64,000 nt of DNA from positions 1 through 64,000 of IMG/VR virus record IMGVR_UViG_3300032268_000599, one strand, 5' to 3'. The notes beneath the pieces are model-generated. The model did not search any database. It saw only the letters and a list, made by a program, of their open reading frames with translations, and had not been told where the DNA came from. Below, piece after piece: positions 5,706 to 58,778 of this stretch; the stretch's first letter is position 1; the number at the start of each line of letters is the position of its first letter. A program made the translations under genes and the position numbers. This stretch comes from a virus.

Positions 5706-6041
5706 ATGACGGATTACAAACCACCTAGAGCGGTTCAGGCTGAAGCGCGCCGTGCCCTGGCCTGGATTAAAGAAGGCCATGCCGGTGGTGGGTTTACCGC
5801 CACCGGGCGTGGACGCGCGGCGCAACTAGCGCGGGGCGCAGCCGTCAGCCGGGAAACCATTGGTCGTATCGCCAGCTACCTGGCGAGGCACGAGGTGGAC
5901 AAGAAGGGCAAGGGGTGGTCCCCCGGTAGCGAAGGGTATCCGTCACCCGGTCGTGTCGCATGGGCCGCGTGGGGTGGCGATGCCGCTAAGTCGTGGACCG
6001 CATCGGTTCTGAAATACGACGACGACGATAGCGACGATTGA
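5706..6041 (+). CDS. Conserved phage head-region protein
   Basis: This 111-residue protein matches a small domain common in actinophage head clusters, sometimes fused to MuF or protease proteins. The shared pattern is ARRALAWIKEGHAGGGFTA, then RGAAVSRETIGRIASYLARHEVD, then the highly conserved KGKGWSPGSEGYPSPGRVAW. It ends in an acidic DDDDSDD tail. No catalytic motif is evident and the function is unknown. Its place between MuF and scaffold suggests a role in head assembly or entry into the head. Confidence 0.75.
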   Translation: MTDYKPPRAVQAEARRALAWIKEGHAGGGFTATGRGRAAQLARGAAVSRETIGRIASYLARHEVDKKGKGWSPGSEGYPSPGRVAWAAWGGDAAKSWTASVLKYDDDDSDD

Positions 6042-36105: not shown

Positions 36106-36420
36106 TCAGGCCAGATTGGAAAGGTTTACCTTGCCTACGGGTCCGTGGGACCGGGTTCGCTTCCACTCCTTGAGGGCGGTCTTTCGCTTGTCGTCTGCGG
36201 CCTTTTTTGCGGCACGACACACCTGACACCGGCACCCCTTGTCGTAGCCGTAGCGACTGTGGTCGGTAACCACGCCAGTGCGGTCCGCACGAGCCTTGTC
36301 CCTGGCCGCGACCCGGCATCCACTACACCTACACCCCCAGTACGCGTACCCCGAGGGGGTTCCATGCCTGGGGTCTGACATTCCCCGTAGCGGCTTTACC
36401 GCCTTGACTGCTTTTCTCAT
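36106..36420 (-). CDS. Cys-rich protein with GCRC-x2-C repeats
   Basis: This 104-residue basic protein has two copies of a motif, HGTPSGYAYWGCRCSGCRVA and YGYDKGCRCQVCRAA, likely forming zinc-binding units. Such proteins are common but uncharacterised in actinophages, and a relative is encoded at 59082. The ATG at 36420 (MRKAVKAVK) is chosen because a -10/-35 pair is placed so that transcription would begin on it. ATG 36432 is an alternative. It is the only leftward gene in this part of the genome. Confidence 0.75.
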   Translation of the reverse strand: MRKAVKAVKPLRGMSDPRHGTPSGYAYWGCRCSGCRVAARDKARADRTGVVTDHSRYGYDKGCRCQVCRAAKKAADDKRKTALKEWKRTRSHGPVGKVNLSNLA

Positions 36421-36427
36421 GCAGAAA

Positions 36428-36457
36428 AGCATACACGCGAGGAAACTATTACGTCAA
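36428..36457 (-). promoter_or_regulatory. Leftward promoter for the Cys-rich gene, leaderless geometry
   Basis: On the minus strand TTGACG (36457-36452) is followed after 18 bases by TATGCT (36433-36428), and then after 7 bases by the ATG at 36420. The start of transcription should fall on or next to the A of the ATG. There is no ribosome binding site, which agrees with a leaderless mRNA. Confidence 0.65.
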
Positions 36458-36742: not shown

Positions 36743-37627
36743 ATGACAGCAATCATGGATGCCCACAGGGGTATCAATCACAGCGGCGGGGAGATCCCCG
36801 CCAACCTGGACATTCGCGTAATGTCCATTTCTTCGGTTCAGGCAGCACAGATGCTTGAACTGCATAAGGGGCCTAATCGTCGCACTTCGGACAATCAGGT
36901 CTTGAAGTTCCAGGCCGACATGGAGAATGGTCGGTGGCACTTTGAGGGTGCCCCCATCAAGCTCTCCAAGACGGGGAAGCTCCTCGACGGCAAGCACCGC
37001 CTGACGGCCTTGGCCAACACGGTGCCCGAAATGGAAATCTCTTTCGTGGTCATCACCGGCCTCGATGATGATTCCCAGATGTATATGGATATCGGTCAGA
37101 TCCGCACCGTGGGCCAGCAGCTTGGCCTTCGCGGGATCTCCAACGGTGTTCTCTACGGGGCCGTAGCCAAGCTCTACCTTGAGTGGACCCGCGGACGCTT
37201 GTTCCGGGCATCCAACCGGGGGTCTACGAGTAAGTCTGAGCAGACCGAATGGGTAATCTCCCATCAGGACATTCTGACCAGGCTTTCGGAGACTGGCTTC
37301 CAGCAGGTGGATGCACCCCCCTCAGTGGTCGGTGCCTTCACCCTGGCGATCTTGCAGATCAGTCCCGCCAGGGCCACCAAGTTCATCAGTCGCCTGGTAA
37401 GCGGTGCCTCACTCGCGGAGGGTGATCCCATCCTCGCTCTTGATCGTCGCCTCAGGAACATCCGGCGCTCCGGTGTCAGGGTGAGCCAGCGGGAGTACTT
37501 GGCGTACTTCATCAAGGCGTGGAATGCCTGGGTGATGGGTGACCGTTTGCAGAAGTTGCAGCTGTCCTCGCTCACTGAGGACAATTTCCCTGAGCTTCTT
37601 TCGGTTATCGACGCGAGCGAACTCTGA
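36743..37627 (+). CDS. ParB-like early protein
   Basis: This 294-residue protein has a ParB/sulfiredoxin-like N-terminal domain: ISSVQAAQMLELHKGPNRRTSD, then PIKLSKTGKLLDGKHRLTALA and FVVITGLDDDSQMYMDIGQ. The rest is helical. Proteins of this kind are often the first or second early gene in actinophages; the ParB-like fold suggests DNA or nucleotide binding, but partitioning is not shown and no ParA is present. It is expressed from an apparently leaderless promoter and ends at a strong terminator. Confidence 0.8.
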   Translation: MTAIMDAHRGINHSGGEIPANLDIRVMSISSVQAAQMLELHKGPNRRTSDNQVLKFQADMENGRWHFEGAPIKLSKTGKLLDGKHRLTALANTVPEMEISFVVITGLDDDSQMYMDIGQIRTVGQQLGLRGISNGVLYGAVAKLYLEWTRGRLFRASNRGSTSKSEQTEWVISHQDILTRLSETGFQQVDAPPSVVGAFTLAILQISPARATKFISRLVSGASLAEGDPILALDRRLRNIRRSGVRVSQREYLAYFIKAWNAWVMGDRLQKLQLSSLTEDNFPELLSVIDASEL

Positions 37628-37637
37628 GAAGTGCAAC

Positions 37638-37679
37638 TGATCGGGGGGTGGGGAATACCCGCCCCCCGATCATTGTTTT
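37638..37679 (+). terminator. Terminator after the ParB-like gene
   Basis: TGATCGGGGGG and CCCCCCGATCA form an 11-base-pair stem, with further GGG/CCC pairing inside, followed by TTGTTTT. It isolates the ParB-like gene, so the following genes need readthrough, antitermination or a second promoter. Confidence 0.9.
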
Positions 37680-37686
37680 ATCTATT

Positions 37687-46861: not shown

Positions 46862-46992
46862 GGCACTGGAATGAACCCCTTGACGCAGAGCAGATCGCGT
46901 GGCTTCAGGAACAGTTTGAATTGGCCAAGCAGAAGATCGAGAGCGTGTGGGGTGGGCAGCCGCAGCCATGGAAACAGAACAGGCGTGAGTGA
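46858..46992 (+). CDS. Small helical protein (44 aa)
   Basis: ATGA overlap with the exonuclease gene. The product MRHWNEPLDAEQIAWLQEQF ... QNRRE is a single amphipathic helix with a basic end. It may be an accessory of the exonuclease or the HNH protein that follows. No family was recognised. Confidence 0.55.
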   Translation: MRHWNEPLDAEQIAWLQEQFELAKQKIESVWGGQPQPWKQNRRE

Positions 46993-47372
46993 TGCCGAAG
47001 TTTGTTGCCACGCCAAAAAGATCAAAGGGCCGGGGTGGTAGGTTGTGGGAGAGGTCAAGGGCTACCTGCCTTTCCCGCTCTCAGATATGTTGGATCTGCG
47101 CGGGAGAGGCCGCGGACGCGGAGTATGCGCCGTTCAGCTGGGACACCATTCCGTTTGAGTCAACGGCTATTGACTTGACTTTGGAGTGGCCGAACCCGGC
47201 GAGCGCAAGTGTCGATCACATCATTCCGATTTCCATGTTGGATCCCGACGACTCGCGGCTGTGGAAGGTGGAATACCTTCGCCCCTCCCATCTTCGGTGT
47301 AACTCCGCTCGCGGCGATGGCCGCAACGGGGACAGGATTAAGACAGTGACTAGCAGAAATTGGTTGGCATAG
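46992..47372 (+). CDS. HNH endonuclease
   Basis: This 126-residue protein has CWICAGEAAD, then SVDHIIPISMLDPDDSRLW and LRPSHLRCNSARGDG. These are the zinc Cys pair, the DH catalytic pair and the N-containing helix of HNH nucleases. It is basic at the N-terminus. The ATG overlaps the previous stop (TGATG). It could nick DNA in recombination or act against competitors. Confidence 0.85.
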   Translation: MPKFVATPKRSKGRGGRLWERSRATCLSRSQICWICAGEAADAEYAPFSWDTIPFESTAIDLTLEWPNPASASVDHIIPISMLDPDDSRLWKVEYLRPSHLRCNSARGDGRNGDRIKTVTSRNWLA

Positions 47373-48061: not shown

Positions 48062-48210
48062 CCACGTTCTTGGAGATTGAGCGCATCGCGGAACGCTTTG
48101 GCGTTCGGGATGAGGATATTCCGGCTTTTATCACCGCTGTTGCCGAATTGGTGAACCGGAAGCCGGTCGAGGACTGGCACGGTAAGGCCACTAGCCGCGG
48201 AATTATATGA
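48058..48210 (+). CDS. Hypothetical protein (50 aa)
   Basis: ATGA overlap with the lipoprotein gene. The product MTTFLEIERIAERFGVRDED ... KATSRGII is helical. It is the last gene of this operon before the extended -10 promoter and the second tail-fibre cluster. No family was recognised. Confidence 0.6.
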   Translation: MTTFLEIERIAERFGVRDEDIPAFITAVAELVNRKPVEDWHGKATSRGII

Positions 48211-48219
48211 ACGGTTCCG

Positions 48220-48228
48220 TGTTAGAAT
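48220..48228 (+). promoter_or_regulatory. Extended -10 promoter TGT-TAGAAT before the second fibre cluster
   Basis: A TG-N-TAGAAT element lies 26 bases before the LtfC-like gene in the only gap in this stretch. It shares TAGAATT with the 45450 element. It probably drives the separate fibre cluster, late in infection if it needs an activator. Confidence 0.5.
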
Positions 48229-48254
48229 TAGGCATTGGGAGAATGGATTGAGGA

Positions 48255-48587
48255 ATGACTGCTAATTCATACATTTGTCCCCCACCGCTGGTAAAGTTAA
48301 TTCCTGTCACGCTGGGGTGCGACCGGTCATTTACTGTGCAGCGAGTAAACTCATCCGGAACTCCGGTTAACTTTGATGCCGGGACCACTTCTTATATCTT
48401 TATTGACATAAGCCGGGAGAATCCCACAAGGGTCAACGCTGTTATTTCCGGCAGTACCGCGGCCTTCACCATTAGTTCCACGGTCTGCGACTTGGTAAAG
48501 ACCGGAACCCGCTGGCGGATCGTTCTTGACTTTGGGGAACTTGAGTCCCCCCTGCTGGTGGGGAGGTTTGAACGTCACGATGGCTGA
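48255..48587 (+). CDS. LtfC-like domain protein
   Basis: This 110-residue protein is a free-standing LtfC/p132/Gp6-type beta-sandwich: LIPVTLGCDRSFTVQRVNSSG, then YIFIDISRENPTRVNAVIS and RWRIVLDFGELESPLLVGRFERHDG. The same domain begins the minor tail protein at 31217. It is probably a tail-tip or fibre base component, first in the second fibre cluster. The ribosome binding site is GATTGAGGA. Confidence 0.82.
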   Translation: MTANSYICPPPLVKLIPVTLGCDRSFTVQRVNSSGTPVNFDAGTTSYIFIDISRENPTRVNAVISGSTAAFTISSTVCDLVKTGTRWRIVLDFGELESPLLVGRFERHDG

Positions 48588-48960
48588 TAGCTACATCATC
48601 AACCAGGACGACCTGATATCGGTGACGGTTACCGATTCCGCCCCGGTGAGCGTCACCGTTACCGACCCCGATCCGATTGAGATTGTTGGCTTCCTTGGAC
48701 CCATGGGTCCGACCGGCCCAAGGGGGGCCGGTAATGAAACGGTTTCTCAGGTAATTTCTGCCAGCCTTCAGAATGGCGTTACCGCTACCTTTACCCTATC
48801 TCAGGCTGCCGATATCACGCAGGCGGTTCAGGTATTTCGCAATGGGCTGTTGGAAATACCGGTCGTCGGATTCACGGCCACCCAGAACTCTATTACCTTA
48901 ACAACCCCTCCGCTGAACAGTGATGTTATAGCGGTCATCTACCAGAAAGTTGCATCGTAA
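48580..48960 (+). CDS. Minor tail protein with short collagen-like segment
   Basis: This 126-residue protein has two VTVTDS/VTVTDP repeats, a short collagen-like GPMGPTGPRGA stretch and a C-terminal domain (NGLLEIPVVGFTATQNSITL) also seen in the next protein. It overlaps the previous gene by eight bases. It is likely a trimeric fibre segment. Confidence 0.75.
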   Translation: MADSYIINQDDLISVTVTDSAPVSVTVTDPDPIEIVGFLGPMGPTGPRGAGNETVSQVISASLQNGVTATFTLSQAADITQAVQVFRNGLLEIPVVGFTATQNSITLTTPPLNSDVIAVIYQKVAS

Positions 48961-49694
48961 TGGCTCAGACCCAGATTAATGGCGGCACACAGATTCGTTC
49001 TGGTTCAATTACCGCCGACCGGCTTGCCGCTGGCACCCTCGACAAGAACGCAGTTGGTCTTGGCAATGTGGATAACACTTCGGATGCCAACAAGCCGATC
49101 AGCACTGCCACGCAGACAGCCCTTGATGGCAAGCAGAATACGTCCACTTACGGCTACGCGACACTTGATGCGGGTGGCAAGGTTCCGGTTTCCCAGTTGC
49201 CTAGTGCAATCATGGAGTACCAGGGTGTGTGGAATGCCAGCACCAATACCCCGACCCTGGCGAATGGAACCGGTAATACCGGTGACGTGTATCGGGTTTC
49301 GGTTTCCGGCAACGCCCTGTCTCTGAGCTTTGAGGTTGGCGACTACATCATCTACAACGGCAGCGTTTGGGAGAAGAGCGACACAACCGATGCGGTTGCA
49401 AGTGTTGCGGGGCGCACCGGAGTAATCACCCTGACCACCACGGACCTGTCGGACTTCGGCACTGCCGTCACCGGAAAATTCGTGACGCGGGAAACCCCGA
49501 CCGGCGCAGTCAACGGCACTAACACGTCTTTCGTGCTCGCCAACACCCCGGTCGCTGGTTCGGAGCAGGTGTTCCTGAATGGCATTTTGCAGGAGCCGGG
49601 TGTCGGTAATGACTACACCATTTCTGGCAGTGCCATTACCTATCTTTCAGCCCCGGTTACGGGCGACAAGATTCGGGTCAGCTACGTTAAGTGA
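48960..49694 (+). CDS. Tail fibre protein
   Basis: This 244-residue fibre has TADRLAAGTLDKNAVGLGNVDNTSDANKPIS, the classic phage fibre repeat, then ATLDAGGKVPVSQLPSAIME. The C-terminal FVLANTPVAGSEQVFLNGIL domain resembles the end of the preceding gene. It starts at the ATG overlapping the previous stop (TAATG). Confidence 0.85.
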   Translation: MAQTQINGGTQIRSGSITADRLAAGTLDKNAVGLGNVDNTSDANKPISTATQTALDGKQNTSTYGYATLDAGGKVPVSQLPSAIMEYQGVWNASTNTPTLANGTGNTGDVYRVSVSGNALSLSFEVGDYIIYNGSVWEKSDTTDAVASVAGRTGVITLTTTDLSDFGTAVTGKFVTRETPTGAVNGTNTSFVLANTPVAGSEQVFLNGILQEPGVGNDYTISGSAITYLSAPVTGDKIRVSYVK

Positions 49695-49704
49695 GAGTTG
49701 AATA

Positions 49705-50787
49705 ATGCCTAAAACAGAAGTTTCTGGCAGTCAGATCAAGGACAGTTCTGTCGCCCTGTCGGGTGCGGCATCTCCAACGGGTAATGCTGACGTGGCCGGT
49801 GTTTTGCCAGCCGGTAACGGAGGGACGGGGCTTTCCTCACCGGGCGCAAGCGGTAACGTGCTGACCTCTGACGGTACGGGGTGGACTACTGCTGCGCCTA
49901 CTGGTGGTGGTGGTGGTGGTGCAGCTAATGCCGGAGTTACTTCTGTTCCTACCGCTGCCGGTGTTACATTACTGTCGAGTTCCAGTACGGAAAACTATGT
50001 GTTTACCGGCGTAAGCACGCAAACGGTGAGGCTTCCTCCCACTGCCACTGTTGGGGCAGTATGGACGATCATTAATCAATCGACTGGGTTGGTGACGGTT
50101 CAGTCCTCCGCAGCTGCTGCGATTGTGGTTTTGGCTGCGGGTACGTCAGCGATTTTTACTGCACTGACTACTGCCCCTACTGCTGCGGCGAACTGGACTG
50201 CGGTATACAACGGCTCCCTGGCTGCGACTGGCAAGAAGCTGACGGTCAACAACACCTTGACACTATCCGGCACTGATGCGACTACGATGACGTTCCCAAC
50301 TACGAACGCCACTATCGCCAGAACTGATGCGGCCCAGACCTTTACGGGTGTGCAGACTTTTAACACCCCGGTCATCAATGGTATTCCGACTGGCACTGGC
50401 GTGGCGACGGCGGCGACTGCCAACACCTTGGTTTTGCGCGGCACTGGCGGCACGGTAACCGGAACATTTATAGATTCCACCACTGCTGTAGGAACTATCG
50501 GCGCGGCGGTGACACTGGCCCTCGCGGGTACGGTGCAGACGGCCACGCTGACTTCAAATACTCCTTGTACGGTGACGATGCCTGCGGTGGCTTCTGGTGC
50601 CTCGTTTGTGTTGTATCTGCGGCAGCCTGCGACGGGTACACCGACGACGGCGACGTTCTCTGGCGTGCGGTGGGGCACTGGCGGTGCGCCGGTCATCACC
50701 AACGTGTTGGGGCGCATGGACATTTTGACGTTTTTCTCTGACGGCACCAACTGGTTCGGACAAGTGGCGCAGGGATACCAGTACTGA
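49705..50787 (+). CDS. Tail fibre protein, Thr/Ala-rich
   Basis: This 360-residue protein begins with a fibre motif, VAGVLPAGNGGTGLSSPGASG, followed by a run of six glycines and a beta-rich shaft. The C-terminal VLYLRQPATGTPTTATFSGVRWGTGG and ILTFFSDGTNWFG resemble knob domains of phage fibres. It ends in TGATG with the next gene. Confidence 0.82.
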   Translation: MPKTEVSGSQIKDSSVALSGAASPTGNADVAGVLPAGNGGTGLSSPGASGNVLTSDGTGWTTAAPTGGGGGGAANAGVTSVPTAAGVTLLSSSSTENYVFTGVSTQTVRLPPTATVGAVWTIINQSTGLVTVQSSAAAAIVVLAAGTSAIFTALTTAPTAAANWTAVYNGSLAATGKKLTVNNTLTLSGTDATTMTFPTTNATIARTDAAQTFTGVQTFNTPVINGIPTGTGVATAATANTLVLRGTGGTVTGTFIDSTTAVGTIGAAVTLALAGTVQTATLTSNTPCTVTMPAVASGASFVLYLRQPATGTPTTATFSGVRWGTGGAPVITNVLGRMDILTFFSDGTNWFGQVAQGYQY

Positions 50788-52619
50788 TGCCGTTAACTAA
50801 AGCCGCACTGATCGGCAAGGATAATCCGCTGCCAACATCGTCGGGTGTCACCTTTGAGTCGGTGGCGGCAGGGTCTTACGTCGGTGCCCTTGCAACGTCG
50901 TGGCAGCACGTCATCACTGCGCCTGCGAACTGCCTGCTGGTGCTGGTGGTCAGTCAGTCAATTTCGCCACCGGCCATGTCTATCGACACGGGTCAAACAT
51001 TCACCTTCCTTAATGCATTGGGGTATACGGCCTTCAGTAACATTTACTACTACCTGTACGGTCTGATGAACCCCACGGTGGGAACCCGCACAATCAGCAC
51101 GTCGATTGGGGCGTTTGCCGGATATGCGGTGGGCGGCAGCAGTATTGCTTATTCCGGCGTGACAGGCTTCGCGGCCAACGTCGCCACGTTTAACACCAGC
51201 ACCGGACTGACCCTTAGCCTTCCTGCTTTTCCTGGCGGTGTGGCGGTCATGGGAACTAATGTTGGATGGACTAGCGCGGCACAAACGTCCCGTCAGAATA
51301 GCGGCTCGTTTGGGTGGCAGGAGTCCACGACGAACACCGGCAACACTAGGAGCTTCACAACTACCTGGGGAACGTCGGAGAACCACCACGCAGTGGGTGT
51401 CGTGCTTAAAGGCCAGGTAACCCCGATCCCTTCGCCCGTATTCGTGGATACGGCGACCGGGCCGTCAGTTACCGGTGCGGGGCAACTCACATCGACGTGG
51501 AACCACACGATTGCGGAAGGAACCAACTGCCTTCTGGTGGGCGTATTTAGCAACGACCTGGCTAATAGGCCGACGGCACTGTCTATTGACTCCGGTGGCC
51601 CATTCACGGTGTTGGATCACATCCAGTACAACGCCTTCGGGGTGATCCATTACACGCTGTACGGGCTGCTGAACCCGCCTGTCGGCACGCGCACTCTCAC
51701 CACAACCTGTTTCGGTTACGGCATCCAAGGTGTCAGTGCCGCCTACAGTGGCGTGTCCGGGTTCGCGGCGACCCACGCTTCGGCGATTGGGGCGGGAACG
51801 AACATAAGCTTCGGCCTTCCTGCTTTCCCCGGTGGTGTGGCGGCTGCGTTTGTTTCAAGCGGCTGGTCAAGCCTTACCCAGACTTCGCGTTCCAATCCGG
51901 CCACTGGGCACGGCTGGCAGGAATCGCGCAACAACACTACTGTCCCTGCTGCAACAGTGAAGGGCACGGCGAATGCGGTGCTGGGAACGTCGGTGACCAT
52001 CCCAGCCCATGACGTTGGCGACGAGATTGTTGTGTTCGCTTATGCCAACGGCATCAACGCCGCGCCCACACCACCAGCGGCCTCTGGCACCGTCCCGGCC
52101 TGGACCCTGATCCAGGGCGGCGGCGGCAACTCCAACGGCTCCGGTGTGTGGCGCTTCACGGCGACGGCCAACAACCACACGTCGGGGACGTGGGGAAGCT
52201 GCACCGGCCTGATCGCGGTGGTGATTGAAGGTGTCCACCCCACGACCCCGGTCGGTGGTTTCGCCCAGGCGACCGCCAACGCCAACAGTGTCTCCGGTGC
52301 CCCGGCCATTACACAGAATGTGACGGACGGGTCAAGCTGCCTGCTCTACTTCCACGGCCACCGCAGCAACGTCACCACCTTGGGTGCGCCGCCAGCCGGT
52401 TTTACCAGACGGGCCGAGGCTATTGGTTCGTCTGGAATATGCCTCAACACTAAAAACGATACAACCTCAGACGGTGCCGCCAACCAGACCGACAACGGCA
52501 ACGGTGGATACGTCGGGCAGACGGTGGAGATACGGGCGAATACCGTTTTAAGCAGAAACTTTTCGACCACCTGGGCGACAAGCGGGGGGCGCGGCGCAGT
52601 CGCCGTGGTGTTGAAATAA
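50787..52619 (+). CDS. Large tail fibre with internal duplication and inserted domain
   Basis: This 610-residue protein contains two copies of a domain of about 200 residues. Matching stretches are AYSGVTGFAANVATF / AYSGVSGFAATHASA, LSLPAFPGGVAVM / FGLPAFPGGVAAA and GWQES / GWQES. Copy 1 ends RSFTTTWGTSENHHAVGVVLKG. In copy 2 the matching end, SRNFSTTWATSGGRGAVAVVLK, comes only after about 200 extra residues that begin VPAATVKGTANAVLGTSVTI. This extra segment is itself a domain common in actinophage tail proteins, so it looks like an insertion into the second repeat. Confidence 0.85.
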   Translation: MPLTKAALIGKDNPLPTSSGVTFESVAAGSYVGALATSWQHVITAPANCLLVLVVSQSISPPAMSIDTGQTFTFLNALGYTAFSNIYYYLYGLMNPTVGTRTISTSIGAFAGYAVGGSSIAYSGVTGFAANVATFNTSTGLTLSLPAFPGGVAVMGTNVGWTSAAQTSRQNSGSFGWQESTTNTGNTRSFTTTWGTSENHHAVGVVLKGQVTPIPSPVFVDTATGPSVTGAGQLTSTWNHTIAEGTNCLLVGVFSNDLANRPTALSIDSGGPFTVLDHIQYNAFGVIHYTLYGLLNPPVGTRTLTTTCFGYGIQGVSAAYSGVSGFAATHASAIGAGTNISFGLPAFPGGVAAAFVSSGWSSLTQTSRSNPATGHGWQESRNNTTVPAATVKGTANAVLGTSVTIPAHDVGDEIVVFAYANGINAAPTPPAASGTVPAWTLIQGGGGNSNGSGVWRFTATANNHTSGTWGSCTGLIAVVIEGVHPTTPVGGFAQATANANSVSGAPAITQNVTDGSSCLLYFHGHRSNVTTLGAPPAGFTRRAEAIGSSGICLNTKNDTTSDGAANQTDNGNGGYVGQTVEIRANTVLSRNFSTTWATSGGRGAVAVVLK

Positions 52620-52625
52620 ACCCCC

Positions 52626-52654
52626 TTGACCTATCGGTAATAGTTATGTACTCT
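52626..52654 (+). promoter_or_regulatory. Promoter of the candidate structured RNA
   Basis: TTGACC and TACTCT are separated by 17 bases. Initiation seven bases on falls at 52661-52662, exactly where the G-rich 5' strand of the RNA's closing helix begins. Confidence 0.6.
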
Positions 52655-52661
52655 TTCCGGT

Positions 52662-52927
52662 GGGGAAGGGTCGTTACCTAACACTGACCGTGAGGCGCAG
52701 TACCCCCCACTTGCCGCCTCCGCAAGGTAGACCCTTCCCCCTTTAAGCTGCGCCCCGGTGCCGGGTTCCGATATCAAATGCACTGCCTCACGAGGGTTTC
52801 GGGAAAGGCACTCCGCCCTGGGCGGCTGGCAGTAGTGAACGCGAGTGGACCGACCCCAGCCGAGCCGCAGCCCCAAGGGAGGACGACACCCCCATGCACT
52901 ATTACAGTGTGTGGGGGTGTTGCTTTA
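52662..52927 (+). ncRNA. Candidate free-standing structured RNA, about 266 nt
   Basis: This 333-base gap has no good open frame but dense pairing. Domain I (52662-52740) is closed by GGGGAAGGGTC with GACCCTTCCCC and contains an inner GAGGCG/CGCCTC helix. Domain II (52747-52871) is closed by GCTGCG/CGCAGC and contains CGGCTGG/CCAGCCG and GTGCC/GGCAC helices. A terminator follows. The promoter is placed so that the transcript starts at the first helix. It does not look like tmRNA, RNase P RNA or a tRNA. It could be a regulatory RNA or RNA decoy; the function is unknown. Confidence 0.6.
52886..52927 (+). terminator. Terminator of the structured RNA
   Basis: ACACCCCCA pairs with TGGGGGTGT, with CACT/AGTG pairing inside, followed by TGCTTTAT. 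The stem is long and GC-rich. Confidence 0.8.
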
Positions 52928-52937
52928 TGCCTAATAG

Positions 52938-52946
52938 TGGTACATT
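52938..52946 (+). promoter_or_regulatory. Extended -10 promoter TGG-TACATT for the small-gene cluster
   Basis: TG-N-TACATT ends six bases before the ATG at 52953, so the mRNA would be leaderless, as at 36.7 kb. No -35 is clear. Confidence 0.5.
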
Positions 52947-52952
52947 GCTTTT

Positions 52953-53180
52953 ATGGAGTATATGGACGGCTTCACAGAGATGGGGGCCATGTCCCTCAAC
53001 ATCGTGGAAGCGGACAGGGTAATCATTGGGGTCCTTGAGGACTCTCCGGACCGGGTGGCATTGGCGCTGGGCAATGATGCGGCGGCACGGTACTACCTGA
53101 TGCAGCTGCCCCCCGCTCGCGCGCGGCAGCTAGCAGCTTCCCTTCTCAATAAATCTGATTCGATTGAGGGGGTCAGGTAA
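52953..53180 (+). CDS. Hypothetical protein (75 aa)
   Basis: First gene of a run of twelve tiny overlapping genes. The product (MEYMDGFTEMGAMSLNIVEADRVIIG ... LNKSDSIEGVR) is an alpha/beta protein without a recognised family. The ATG at 52953 lies six bases after an extended -10 box and has no ribosome binding site, so translation may be leaderless. Confidence 0.65.
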   Translation: MEYMDGFTEMGAMSLNIVEADRVIIGVLEDSPDRVALALGNDAAARYYLMQLPPARARQLAASLLNKSDSIEGVR

Positions 53181-55134: not shown

Positions 55135-55298
55135 CGCTGCACGATGCGATCACGTTCGCTATCCGCGACAACTTTTCGCCCCGGATGTGGGCCGATGCCG
55201 ACGATATGGCCGCTCTTGTTATCCGTACCGTCGCGCAGTACCGCAAGTCGGTCAGTGAGGACGAGTTCCTTGACGAAATTCTGGCCGCGGAGGACTAG
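55131..55298 (+). CDS. Hypothetical protein (55 aa)
   Basis: ATGA overlap with the previous gene. The product MTLHDAITFAIRDNFSPRMW ... LAAED is helical and acidic. Its stop shares the CTAG tetranucleotide with the stop of the convergent integrase. No family was recognised. Confidence 0.6.
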   Translation: MTLHDAITFAIRDNFSPRMWADADDMAALVIRTVAQYRKSVSEDEFLDEILAAED

Positions 55299-56200
55299 AA
55301 GCCCAGGTTTAAGCCCTTGGCTTCATCGAGTGCGCGTTCGGCGGCAGAGGCCCCGGTGTACCGGTCGATCATGGCCCTGGAACTCCACCCGGCGATAGCC
55401 ATTAAACCGCCCTCAGAGCCACCGTGCAGCAGCCAGCGGGTCGCCGCGGTGTGCCGGGTGCGGTGCGGGTGAAATCCCTTCACACCGGCAGACTCAGCGC
55501 GAGCTTTCAGCGTCGATACCAGGGTGTGATATTGCATGGGGGTGCCCCAGGCGGTGATCCAAAACTTGTCGTTACCGGGCTTTACCGCCCTGCGGCGTGC
55601 CCGAATGTAACGGTCTACCGCAATGGCCGTGGCCGCGGAGAACGGCACCATCCGGCCCTTGCCACCCTTGCCCTTGATGATGATGGCTTTCATGGCAGGC
55701 AGGTCGAGGTCGTCTATCCGCATTCCCACCAATTCCGCACTGCGCGTTGCTGTCTCAAACATGAACCGCAGGATCGCCTCGTCGCGTATGTCGATGAATT
55801 TGGAGGACTTGCTGACCCCGGCACGCTTGCACGCTTTCAGCATGGCGTTGACCTGATCGTCCGATAGTGACGGCACCACCTTGTCGTTCTTGCGCGGTGG
55901 CCCCATCCCCAGGAACGGGTCGGCGGTCGTTTCGCCTTCCTCGCGCAGCCACTTGACGAAGGATTTCAGCGCATAGTGGCGCAGCCGTGCGGTATTGGGT
56001 TCGGTGCCTGCCGCTAGGGTGTCGGCATGAAACTTCTGGATGCTCAGTTTCAGCAGCGGTTCGGTGGTGCCGGTGGCCTCGCACCATTGCAGGTAGCAGA
56101 TCACCGACCGGGTGTAGCTGCCCAGGGTTTGGGGCGACTTGTTCAGCGCCGCCAGGGATATCCGCCACGATTCGACCAGTTCCAGCAAATCTTTGACCAT
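55295..56200 (-). CDS. int: Tyrosine integrase
   Basis: This 301-residue protein inserts phage DNA into the host chromosome. The N-terminal SAM-like DNA-binding domain runs to about residue 105. The catalytic core shows R153 (ATRSAELVGMRIDDL), K178/K181 (GKGGKGRMVPF), H246-R-T-R249-H (HPHRTRHTAAT), W272 in AIAGWSS and the nucleophile Y281 (MIDRYTG). ATG 56200 is chosen; the frame extends 36 codons upstream through a terminator hairpin. It makes the phage temperate. No att core or excisionase was recognised. Confidence 0.94.
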   Translation of the reverse strand: MVKDLLELVESWRISLAALNKSPQTLGSYTRSVICYLQWCEATGTTEPLLKLSIQKFHADTLAAGTEPNTARLRHYALKSFVKWLREEGETTADPFLGMGPPRKNDKVVPSLSDDQVNAMLKACKRAGVSKSSKFIDIRDEAILRFMFETATRSAELVGMRIDDLDLPAMKAIIIKGKGGKGRMVPFSAATAIAVDRYIRARRRAVKPGNDKFWITAWGTPMQYHTLVSTLKARAESAGVKGFHPHRTRHTAATRWLLHGGSEGGLMAIAGWSSRAMIDRYTGASAAERALDEAKGLNLGF

Positions 56201-56244
56201 GGTCTTATCTTGACATATAGCTCTGTGCCCGGTGTGCGCGACCC

Positions 56245-56288
56245 GAAAAAAGAACAAACCCCCTGGTGCGAGGGGTGACACCAGGGGG
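56245..56288 (-). terminator. Leftward terminator before the integrase
   Basis: On the minus strand CCCCCTGGTG and CACCAGGGGG form a ten-base-pair stem with a ten-base loop, followed by TTTGTTCTTTTTT. It should end the long leftward operon before the integrase and keep integrase under separate control. Confidence 0.85.
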
Positions 56289-56404
56289 CTTGAAACTCTT
56301 GAAAACACGTTCTTAAACTTGAGTTAGCTCTGTCCGTTGGGCTGTTTTACCTGCACATACATTAGCGTTGTGCGGGGTATTATTCTGAGGTTTGCAACCC
56401 GCTA
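56289..56404. other. Gap upstream of the integrase with CTTGAA-type repeats
   Basis: The sequence has CTTGAAACT, CTTGAAAAC, CTTAAACTT and CTTGAG within 40 bases (56289-56325). Such clustered short repeats next to an integrase could be arm-type binding sites of an attP. No core matching a tRNA 3' end was recognised. Confidence 0.3.
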
Positions 56405-58160: not shown

Positions 58161-58778
58161 TTATATCCTTTCGATCTGATGGAACCCAAGTTCCACCGGG
58201 GTATCCCGACCGAATATTGAAACCAGAACGTGAAGCTTCCTGCGTTCAACATCGACCTCGCTAACGGAGGCGTGGTAGCCGGTGAACGGGCCGTCCATAA
58301 CGGTAACCGCATCCCCGATTGTGAAGTCGCAAACGATTACGTCCGCTATCGGGAGGTCTGCTACGCCAGCCGGTTTCCCGACCTCTTTTGCGGCGGGGGG
58401 GAGTAGGAACTTGACTACATCGCCAATGGGAAGCGGGGTCGGGAGGGTGGTGGCCCCCACGAACCCGCTGATGCCCGGTGTGTTCTTAACCGCCGCCCAG
58501 GACTCATCGGTCAGTTCCATACGGATCAATACATAACCTGGCATGACGGTCTTTTTGGCCACCTTTCGTTGGCCATTCTTGAGCGTCACAACCTGTTGGG
58601 TTGGAGCTTCCGCCTGAAATATTAGGTGGTCAATCCCCAGGTTTTGGACTCGTTGCATGAGGTTGGTCTTAGCCAGATTTTCTGCACCAACCTTGGCGCG
58701 AGCCACATACCACTCGCCGGGAAGGGCCTGAAGATCGGCCCGTAAAGATTCCGCTGTATCAGTTGTTTCTGTGGTCAT
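58161..58778 (-). CDS. nusG: Phage-encoded NusG transcription elongation factor
   Basis: This 205-residue protein is a complete NusG. The NGN domain (20-125) has [53 protein letters not shown] and [16 protein letters not shown]. The KOW domain (150-205) has [20 protein letters not shown] and [19 protein letters not shown]. It is very like actinobacterial NusG, so it was probably taken from a host. NusG binds RNA polymerase and affects pausing, Rho and coupling; a phage copy could antiterminate its own transcripts or compete with host NusG. A structured leader lies upstream. Confidence 0.95.

What the first reader, a model, noticed from the sequence alone, without database searches (positions are those of the whole stretch)
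52620..52930. Candidate free-standing structured RNA with its own promoter and terminator
A gene-free gap between the second fibre cluster and the small-gene run has TTGACC-N17-TACTCT, a transcript start predicted exactly at an 11-base-pair closing helix, two nested multi-helix domains and a strong terminator. It resembles no RNA family I can recognise.
Basis: partly seen in the sequence, partly recalled or inferred. Interest (0 to 1): 0.8.

Follow-up and report, generated by a model that had tools for sequence, protein, structure and literature searches.

The report
Phage RNA gene of unknown family
A phage distantly related to known mycobacteriophages carries what looks like a small gene for a folded, non-coding RNA of about 265 nucleotides, belonging to no RNA family in Rfam, at the spot where its relatives keep other phage RNA genes; its function is not known.

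Summary
Confirmed: a gene-free gap with TTGACC-N17-TACTCT, an 11-bp closing helix starting at the predicted transcript start, and a 17-bp terminator hairpin (tail UUGCUUUAU). No Rfam family matches. One relative was found (L064, IMG/VR 3300032302_000137). Similarity to it begins exactly at the -35 box; the fibre genes just upstream are unrelated. Promoter to terminator is 80-94% identical, against 72-75% for the next two genes, and neither strand keeps an open frame. Domain 1 and the terminator fold far better than shuffled sequence in both phages. Domain 2 does not, and the window's own best fold is partly broken in the relative; a different fold survives with five two-sided changes (2-6% by chance). 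Related Vilmaviridae keep tmRNA, tRNA and GOLLD genes at this point of the genome. The next gene appears to have its own leaderless promoter, so a free-standing RNA is more likely than a leader. Best mechanism, inferred only: a trans-acting RNA using its invariant ACCCCCC loop, like mycobacterial 6C/B11. Only two members are known and there is no expression evidence.

The parts
52626..52654 (+). Promoter TTGACC-N17-TACTCT (-10 matches mycobacterial TANNNT); spacer holds GTAATAGTT, the most over-represented 9-mer of the window
   Evidence: 94% conserved in L064 over 52625-52656
52661..52926 (+). Predicted RNA transcript, about 265 nt (start at 52661/52662, end at the terminator)
   Evidence: inferred ends, no RNA data
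52662..52740 (+). Domain 1: 11-bp closing helix 52662-52672/52730-52740 and apical hairpin 52692-52720 with C6 loop (ACCCCCC, 52702-52708); the apical hairpin is identical in L064 except one bulged base, and one closing-helix pair is lost there
   Evidence: z -4.7; L064 z -4.3
52748..52870 (+). Domain 2, consensus fold: 52748-52752/52866-52870, 52757-52762/52807-52812, 52767-52771/52799-52803, 52823-52829/52856-52862, GCGA tetraloop at 52841-52844
   Evidence: two-sided changes; not more stable than shuffles
52884..52922 (+). Terminator hairpin, 17 bp, tail UUGCUUUAU; a two-sided C-G to A-U change in L064; its loop region holds CACTATTAC, a variant of the repeated 9-mer
   Evidence: same class of tail near 37675
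52941..52952 (+). Candidate leaderless promoter element TACATT-N6 directly before ATG 52953 (27-nt spacer 93% conserved)
52953..53180 (+). 75-aa ORF, first of the small-gene run downstream; codon-position pattern of a real gene (14/4/38 substitutions)

Best explanation
The gap is a free-standing RNA gene. RNA polymerase starts at 52661/52662 from a SigA-type promoter and stops at the 52884-52922 hairpin, giving a stable non-coding RNA of about 265 nt. Domain 1 is a long closed hairpin that ends in an invariant C6 loop; domain 2 is a branched fold with a GNRA-capped arm. Shown here: the sequence signals, conservation above that of neighbouring genes, no conserved open frame, and pair-preserving changes. 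Inferred: that it is transcribed, that it acts in trans, and that the C6 loop is the working part, pairing with G-rich ribosome-binding sites as the loops of mycobacterial 6C/B11 RNA do. The promoter spacer carries the phage's most over-represented 9-mer, so expression is probably under a phage regulator, perhaps silenced in lysogeny. The confidence given is for 'free-standing RNA gene'; given that, I put the C6-loop antisense mechanism at about 0.3, a GOLLD-like or translation-related role at about 0.3, and something else at the rest.
For: Promoter, closing helix and hairpin in register. Homology to L064 begins at 52625, one base before the -35, with fibre genes upstream unrelated. Identity by segment 94/88/80/91/93% against 75/72% in the next genes. 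No frame conserved on either strand. Consensus fold z = -5.9 on the + strand, -4.4 on the - strand. Five pairs changed on both sides with none broken, none when slid by 1-3 columns, 14 of 500 shuffles as good; column-shuffle control 3 of 200 for the whole RNA, 13 of 200 without the terminator. The next gene has TACATT-N6-ATG and no Shine-Dalgarno just upstream, which fits leaderless starts as in 24% of M. smegmatis transcripts (PMC6448022). Relatives have RNA genes at this locus: tmRNA in Kumao and Bongo, GOLLD in all six Mclasvirinae searched.
Against: Only two sequences exist in all the data searched, so covariation is thin, and domain 2 is energetically unremarkable. Domain 1 shows no covariation because nothing in its consensus pairs varies. 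The U-tract is imperfect. The terminator lies about 27 nt before a gene, which also suits a leader. No conserved complement of the C6 loop was found in the phage, so targets, if any, would be in the host. Rfam's 6C model did not match.
Confidence: 0.62

Rival explanations
1. Cis-acting leader (attenuator or riboswitch type) of the small-gene operon that starts at 52953: the structured RNA senses something and decides whether the hairpin 52884-52922 stops transcription.
For: Promoter, structured RNA, terminator and gene lie in that order within 330 nt, and the whole unit is inherited together with the downstream genes in L064. AGTAGTG (52831-52837) can pair with CACTATT in the terminator's 5' arm, and ATGCACTG (52778-52785) with its 3' arm, in both phages.
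Against: By my estimate such 7-8-bp complements are about as frequent as chance gives in this space, and they are far weaker than the 17-bp terminator. The downstream gene has its own candidate leaderless promoter and lacks a Shine-Dalgarno site just upstream. No riboswitch family matches.
Confidence: 0.2
2. No RNA function: a regulated promoter and a terminator that bound the exchangeable fibre cassette, conserved for their DNA sites (operator-like 9-mer, terminator) with incidental structure between.
For: The homology block begins exactly at the promoter and the fibre genes upstream are swapped. The repeated 9-mer lies in the spacer, with a variant in the terminator loop. Domain 2 is no more stable than chance.
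Against: Domain 1 and domain 2 between the two sites are 88% and 80% conserved, above coding DNA, with pair-preserving changes. A spacer without function should not be.
Confidence: 0.1
3. Processive antitermination element (HK022 put-like or LoaP-leader-like) that works with the NusG encoded by the phage at 58161-58778.
For: Both phages with the RNA encode a NusG; none of 17 other related records searched does.
Against: The two phages are close relatives, so the co-occurrence is one event. The NusG scores as a housekeeping-type equivalog (167 bits, cut-off 135.7), not as LoaP or RfaH. The element is followed at once by a terminator that it would have to overcome.
Confidence: 0.05
4. A decayed or rearranged tmRNA/tRNA/GOLLD gene left at the locus where relatives carry those genes.
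For: Same place after the HNH gene as tmRNA in Kumao and tmRNA-tRNA-GOLLD in Bongo.
Against: ARAGORN and Rfam find no tmRNA, tRNA or GOLLD; no sequence similarity to those genes; strong conservation argues against decay.
Confidence: 0.03

Closest known systems
GOLLD RNA (RF02032)
   Same: Structured phage RNA of unknown function, beside tRNA/HNH genes; present in all six Mclasvirinae searched, in Bongo at the matching locus
   Different: GOLLD is over 400 nt (model 416 positions); no match in the window's or L064's record
6C / B11 small RNA of mycobacteria
   Same: Hairpin with a run of six C in the loop; host group probably related
   Different: 6C/B11 has two such loops; here one, inside a larger two-domain RNA; no Rfam match
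tmRNA of Kumao and Bongo (RF00023)
   Same: Same genome position after the HNH endonuclease gene
   Different: No tRNA-like domain, no tag frame, no ARAGORN or Rfam hit
T4 stable RNAs C and D (from memory)
   Same: Stable phage RNAs of unknown function located with phage tRNA genes
   Different: No sequence comparison made here; unrelated phage and host
RNA-based origins of cluster A prophages (PMC7157519)
   Same: Non-coding RNA of an actinophage outside coding regions
   Different: Those phages lack an integrase and carry parABS; this phage has a tyrosine integrase

Membership tests
Any Rfam 15 family | Covariance-model score at or above gathering threshold | tested here: not met
   0 matches in the window; nothing credible at E<=10 in the window or L064
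6C / B11 RNA | Two hairpins, each with a C-rich loop | tested here: not met
   One C6 loop only (52703-52708); no Rfam match
6C / B11 RNA | C-rich loop pairs with G-rich ribosome-binding sites and represses | not testable with these tools
   No conserved phage target; host unknown
GOLLD (RF02032) | Conserved 3' region of the model | tested here: not met
   No match in G000 or G023; positive in six Mclasvirinae
tmRNA (RF00023) | tRNA-like domain with tag reading frame | tested here: not met
   ARAGORN 0 genes, no Rfam match
Riboswitch/attenuator leader | Conserved alternative pairing that excludes the terminator | tested here: inconclusive
   Only 7-8-bp alternatives, about as many as chance gives
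Riboswitch/attenuator leader | Downstream gene transcribed through the leader | not testable with these tools
   Own leaderless promoter candidate at 52941; no RNA data
Independent RNA gene | Own promoter and terminator signals, no conserved ORF | tested here: met
Independent RNA gene | Compensatory changes in helices across relatives | tested here: inconclusive
   5 two-sided changes, 14/500 and 3/200 in controls, but one relative only
Independent RNA gene | Discrete transcript | not testable with these tools
   No transcriptome held

The most novel reading that the evidence does not exclude
A new family of phage-encoded structured RNA, found so far in two phages that also encode their own NusG, which takes the genome place of tmRNA/GOLLD and works in trans on host transcription or translation by a mechanism not yet described.
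Probability: 0.3. Interest if true: 0.65.

Novelty: new variant of a known kind. Interest (0 to 1): 0.45.

Why it matters
Phage RNA loci with tmRNA, tRNAs and GOLLD are widespread in mycobacteriophages and mostly unexplained. A smaller RNA that stands alone at the same locus, with a defined promoter, would be an easy test case for what such RNAs do. It also gives annotators a starting model (two sequences, consensus structure) for a family that Rfam lacks.

Tried and rejected
Homologs by blastn in phages and plasmids: none. All eight viral-contig scans with neighbour genes, portal, NusG and RNA patterns: only contig 3300032302_000137 carries the RNA; the other RNA-pattern hits (L067, L090-L092) are chance matches in coding DNA. 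A genome contigs pattern scan gave 13 hits, no more than chance would give, none in Actinobacteria by title (not examined further). Covariance model R1 over 35 records (related viral contigs, Kumao, Bongo, two other phages) and nine Vilmaviridae genomes (two in both sets): only L064's record. Searching mycobacterial genomes with R1 was not possible, as no genome handle was available. Coding on either strand: frames not conserved. DGR template repeat: no copy of the gap elsewhere in the window. RNA-based prophage origin: the phage has an integrase. C6-loop targets in the phage: none conserved. An even stabler stretch at 5741 proved to lie in a small ORF.

Full report
What the window is. The window is bases 1-64000 of a 70,362-base virus record. 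Its head and tail proteins are mostly 23-57% identical to those of Mycobacterium phage Kumao, and it keeps Kumao's and Bongo's replication gene order, so it is a distant member or neighbour of the Vilmaviridae. It has a tyrosine integrase (55295-56308, -) and no tRNA or tmRNA gene.

The observation. The gap 52620-52952 holds no convincing ORF. TTGACC (52626) and TACTCT (52649) are 17 nt apart; six such TTGACN-N16-19-TANNNT sites exist on both strands of the window. The predicted start, 52661/52662, is the beginning of an 11-bp helix 52662-52672/52730-52740. A 17-bp hairpin with the tail UUGCUUUAU follows at 52884-52922. The same kind of tail (UUGUUUUAU) follows a strong hairpin after the gene ending at 37627, so the hairpin is a credible terminator in spite of its broken U-tract. 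Rfam gives nothing.

The relative. One contig, IMG/VR 3300032302_000137 (L064), carries the same element. Similarity starts at 52625, one base before the -35 box. The fibre genes upstream differ completely between the phages, and in the window the fibre stop codon lies only seven bases before the -35. Identity is 94% in the promoter, 88% in domain 1, 80% in domain 2, 91% in the terminator and 93% in the spacer after it, against 75% and 72% in the next two genes. The next gene shows a normal codon-position pattern (14/4/38), so it is a real gene and the element is under stronger constraint than it. Neither strand of the element keeps a reading frame.

Structure. Domain 1 and the terminator are far more stable than shuffled sequence in both phages (z about -4.5 and -6.8). 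Domain 2 is not (z about +0.8). A consensus fold with other helices in domain 2 keeps every pair in both phages. It shows five pairs changed on both sides: four in domain 2 and one in the terminator in the alignment, or five in domain 2 in that, which treats a small gap differently. The clearest case is GGTGCC/GGCACT to GGTAAC/GTTACC (52757-52762/52807-52812). Controls: 3 of 200 column shuffles reach the number of two-sided changes for the whole RNA, 13 of 200 without the terminator, 10 of 200 for domain 2 alone; 14 of 500 in the tool's own shuffle and none in slid versions. The consensus was chosen to fit these two sequences, so this is moderate evidence. The + strand folds better than the - strand (z -5.9 against -4.4).

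Free-standing or leader. The gene at 52953 has TACATT six bases before its ATG, in a spacer that is 93% conserved, and no Shine-Dalgarno site just upstream. The genes at 36743 (+) and 36432 (-) show the same arrangement, a -10 seven bases before ATG, below TTGAC boxes. In M. smegmatis 24% of transcripts are leaderless, and TANNNT is the preferred -10 (PMC6448022). I therefore read the terminator as the end of the RNA gene and 52941-52952 as the next promoter. Conserved alternative pairings with the terminator exist but are short and, by my estimate, about as frequent as chance. The leader reading remains the main rival.

Place in the genome. In Kumao a tmRNA, and in Bongo tRNA, tmRNA and GOLLD genes, follow the HNH gene whose homolog here is 46989-47372. 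All six Mclasvirinae searched have GOLLD; the window's record and L064's do not. In this lineage the fibre cassette and this RNA lie between the HNH gene and the small-gene run. This is similarity of place, not of sequence: the model of the RNA matches none of nine Vilmaviridae genomes.

Mechanism. The apical hairpin of domain 1 ends in ACCCCCC and is identical in the two phages apart from one bulged base in the stem. Mycobacterial 6C/B11 RNA represses by pairing C-rich loops with ribosome-binding sites (PMC10470900). That makes a trans-acting antisense RNA the most concrete proposal, but no conserved target was found in the phage, the host is unknown and the Rfam 6C model does not match. I give it about 0.3, conditional on the RNA gene being real. 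The spacer of the RNA promoter holds GTAATAGTT, seen five times against 0.13 expected, once also directly after the -35 of the leftward promoter at 36457; this looks like a regulator's site and suggests that the RNA is under phage control. That step is inference.

Verdict. An RNA gene, probably real, of a family not in Rfam, with two known members and no expression evidence.

Noticed in passing
58161-58778 (-): Full-length NusG homolog (NCBIfam nusG equivalog, 167 bits, cut-off 135.7); also in L064 (77% identical) but in none of 17 other related records searched, and no Mycobacterium phage is among the organisms named in the tally of 43 phage-collection matches. A phage with its own housekeeping-type NusG deserves a separate look.
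   Followed up: partly
1317, 27121, 36445, 41560 (-) and 52637 (+); variants 5659, 52898: GTAATAGTT is the most over-represented 9-mer (5 against 0.13 expected), two copies inside TTGAC promoters, with copies also in L064 (4610, 8855, 10648, 12518): operator or stoperator-like sites.
   Followed up: partly
48141-52625: Fibre cassette replaced as a block between the window and L064, with the right-hand break at the -35 box of the RNA promoter.
   Followed up: partly
37635-37680 (+): Very strong terminator-like hairpin (tail UUGUUUUAU) after the gene 36743-37627.
   Followed up: no
55295-56308 (-): Tyrosine integrase, whereas Kumao and Bongo are annotated with serine integrases.
   Followed up: no
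L061:24108-24521: GOLLD RNA not annotated in the Bongo record (216 bits), and present in five other Mclasvirinae.
   Followed up: yes
36106-36432 (-): Small Cys-rich ORF directly below the leftward promoter that contains the repeated 9-mer; candidate regulator.
   Followed up: no
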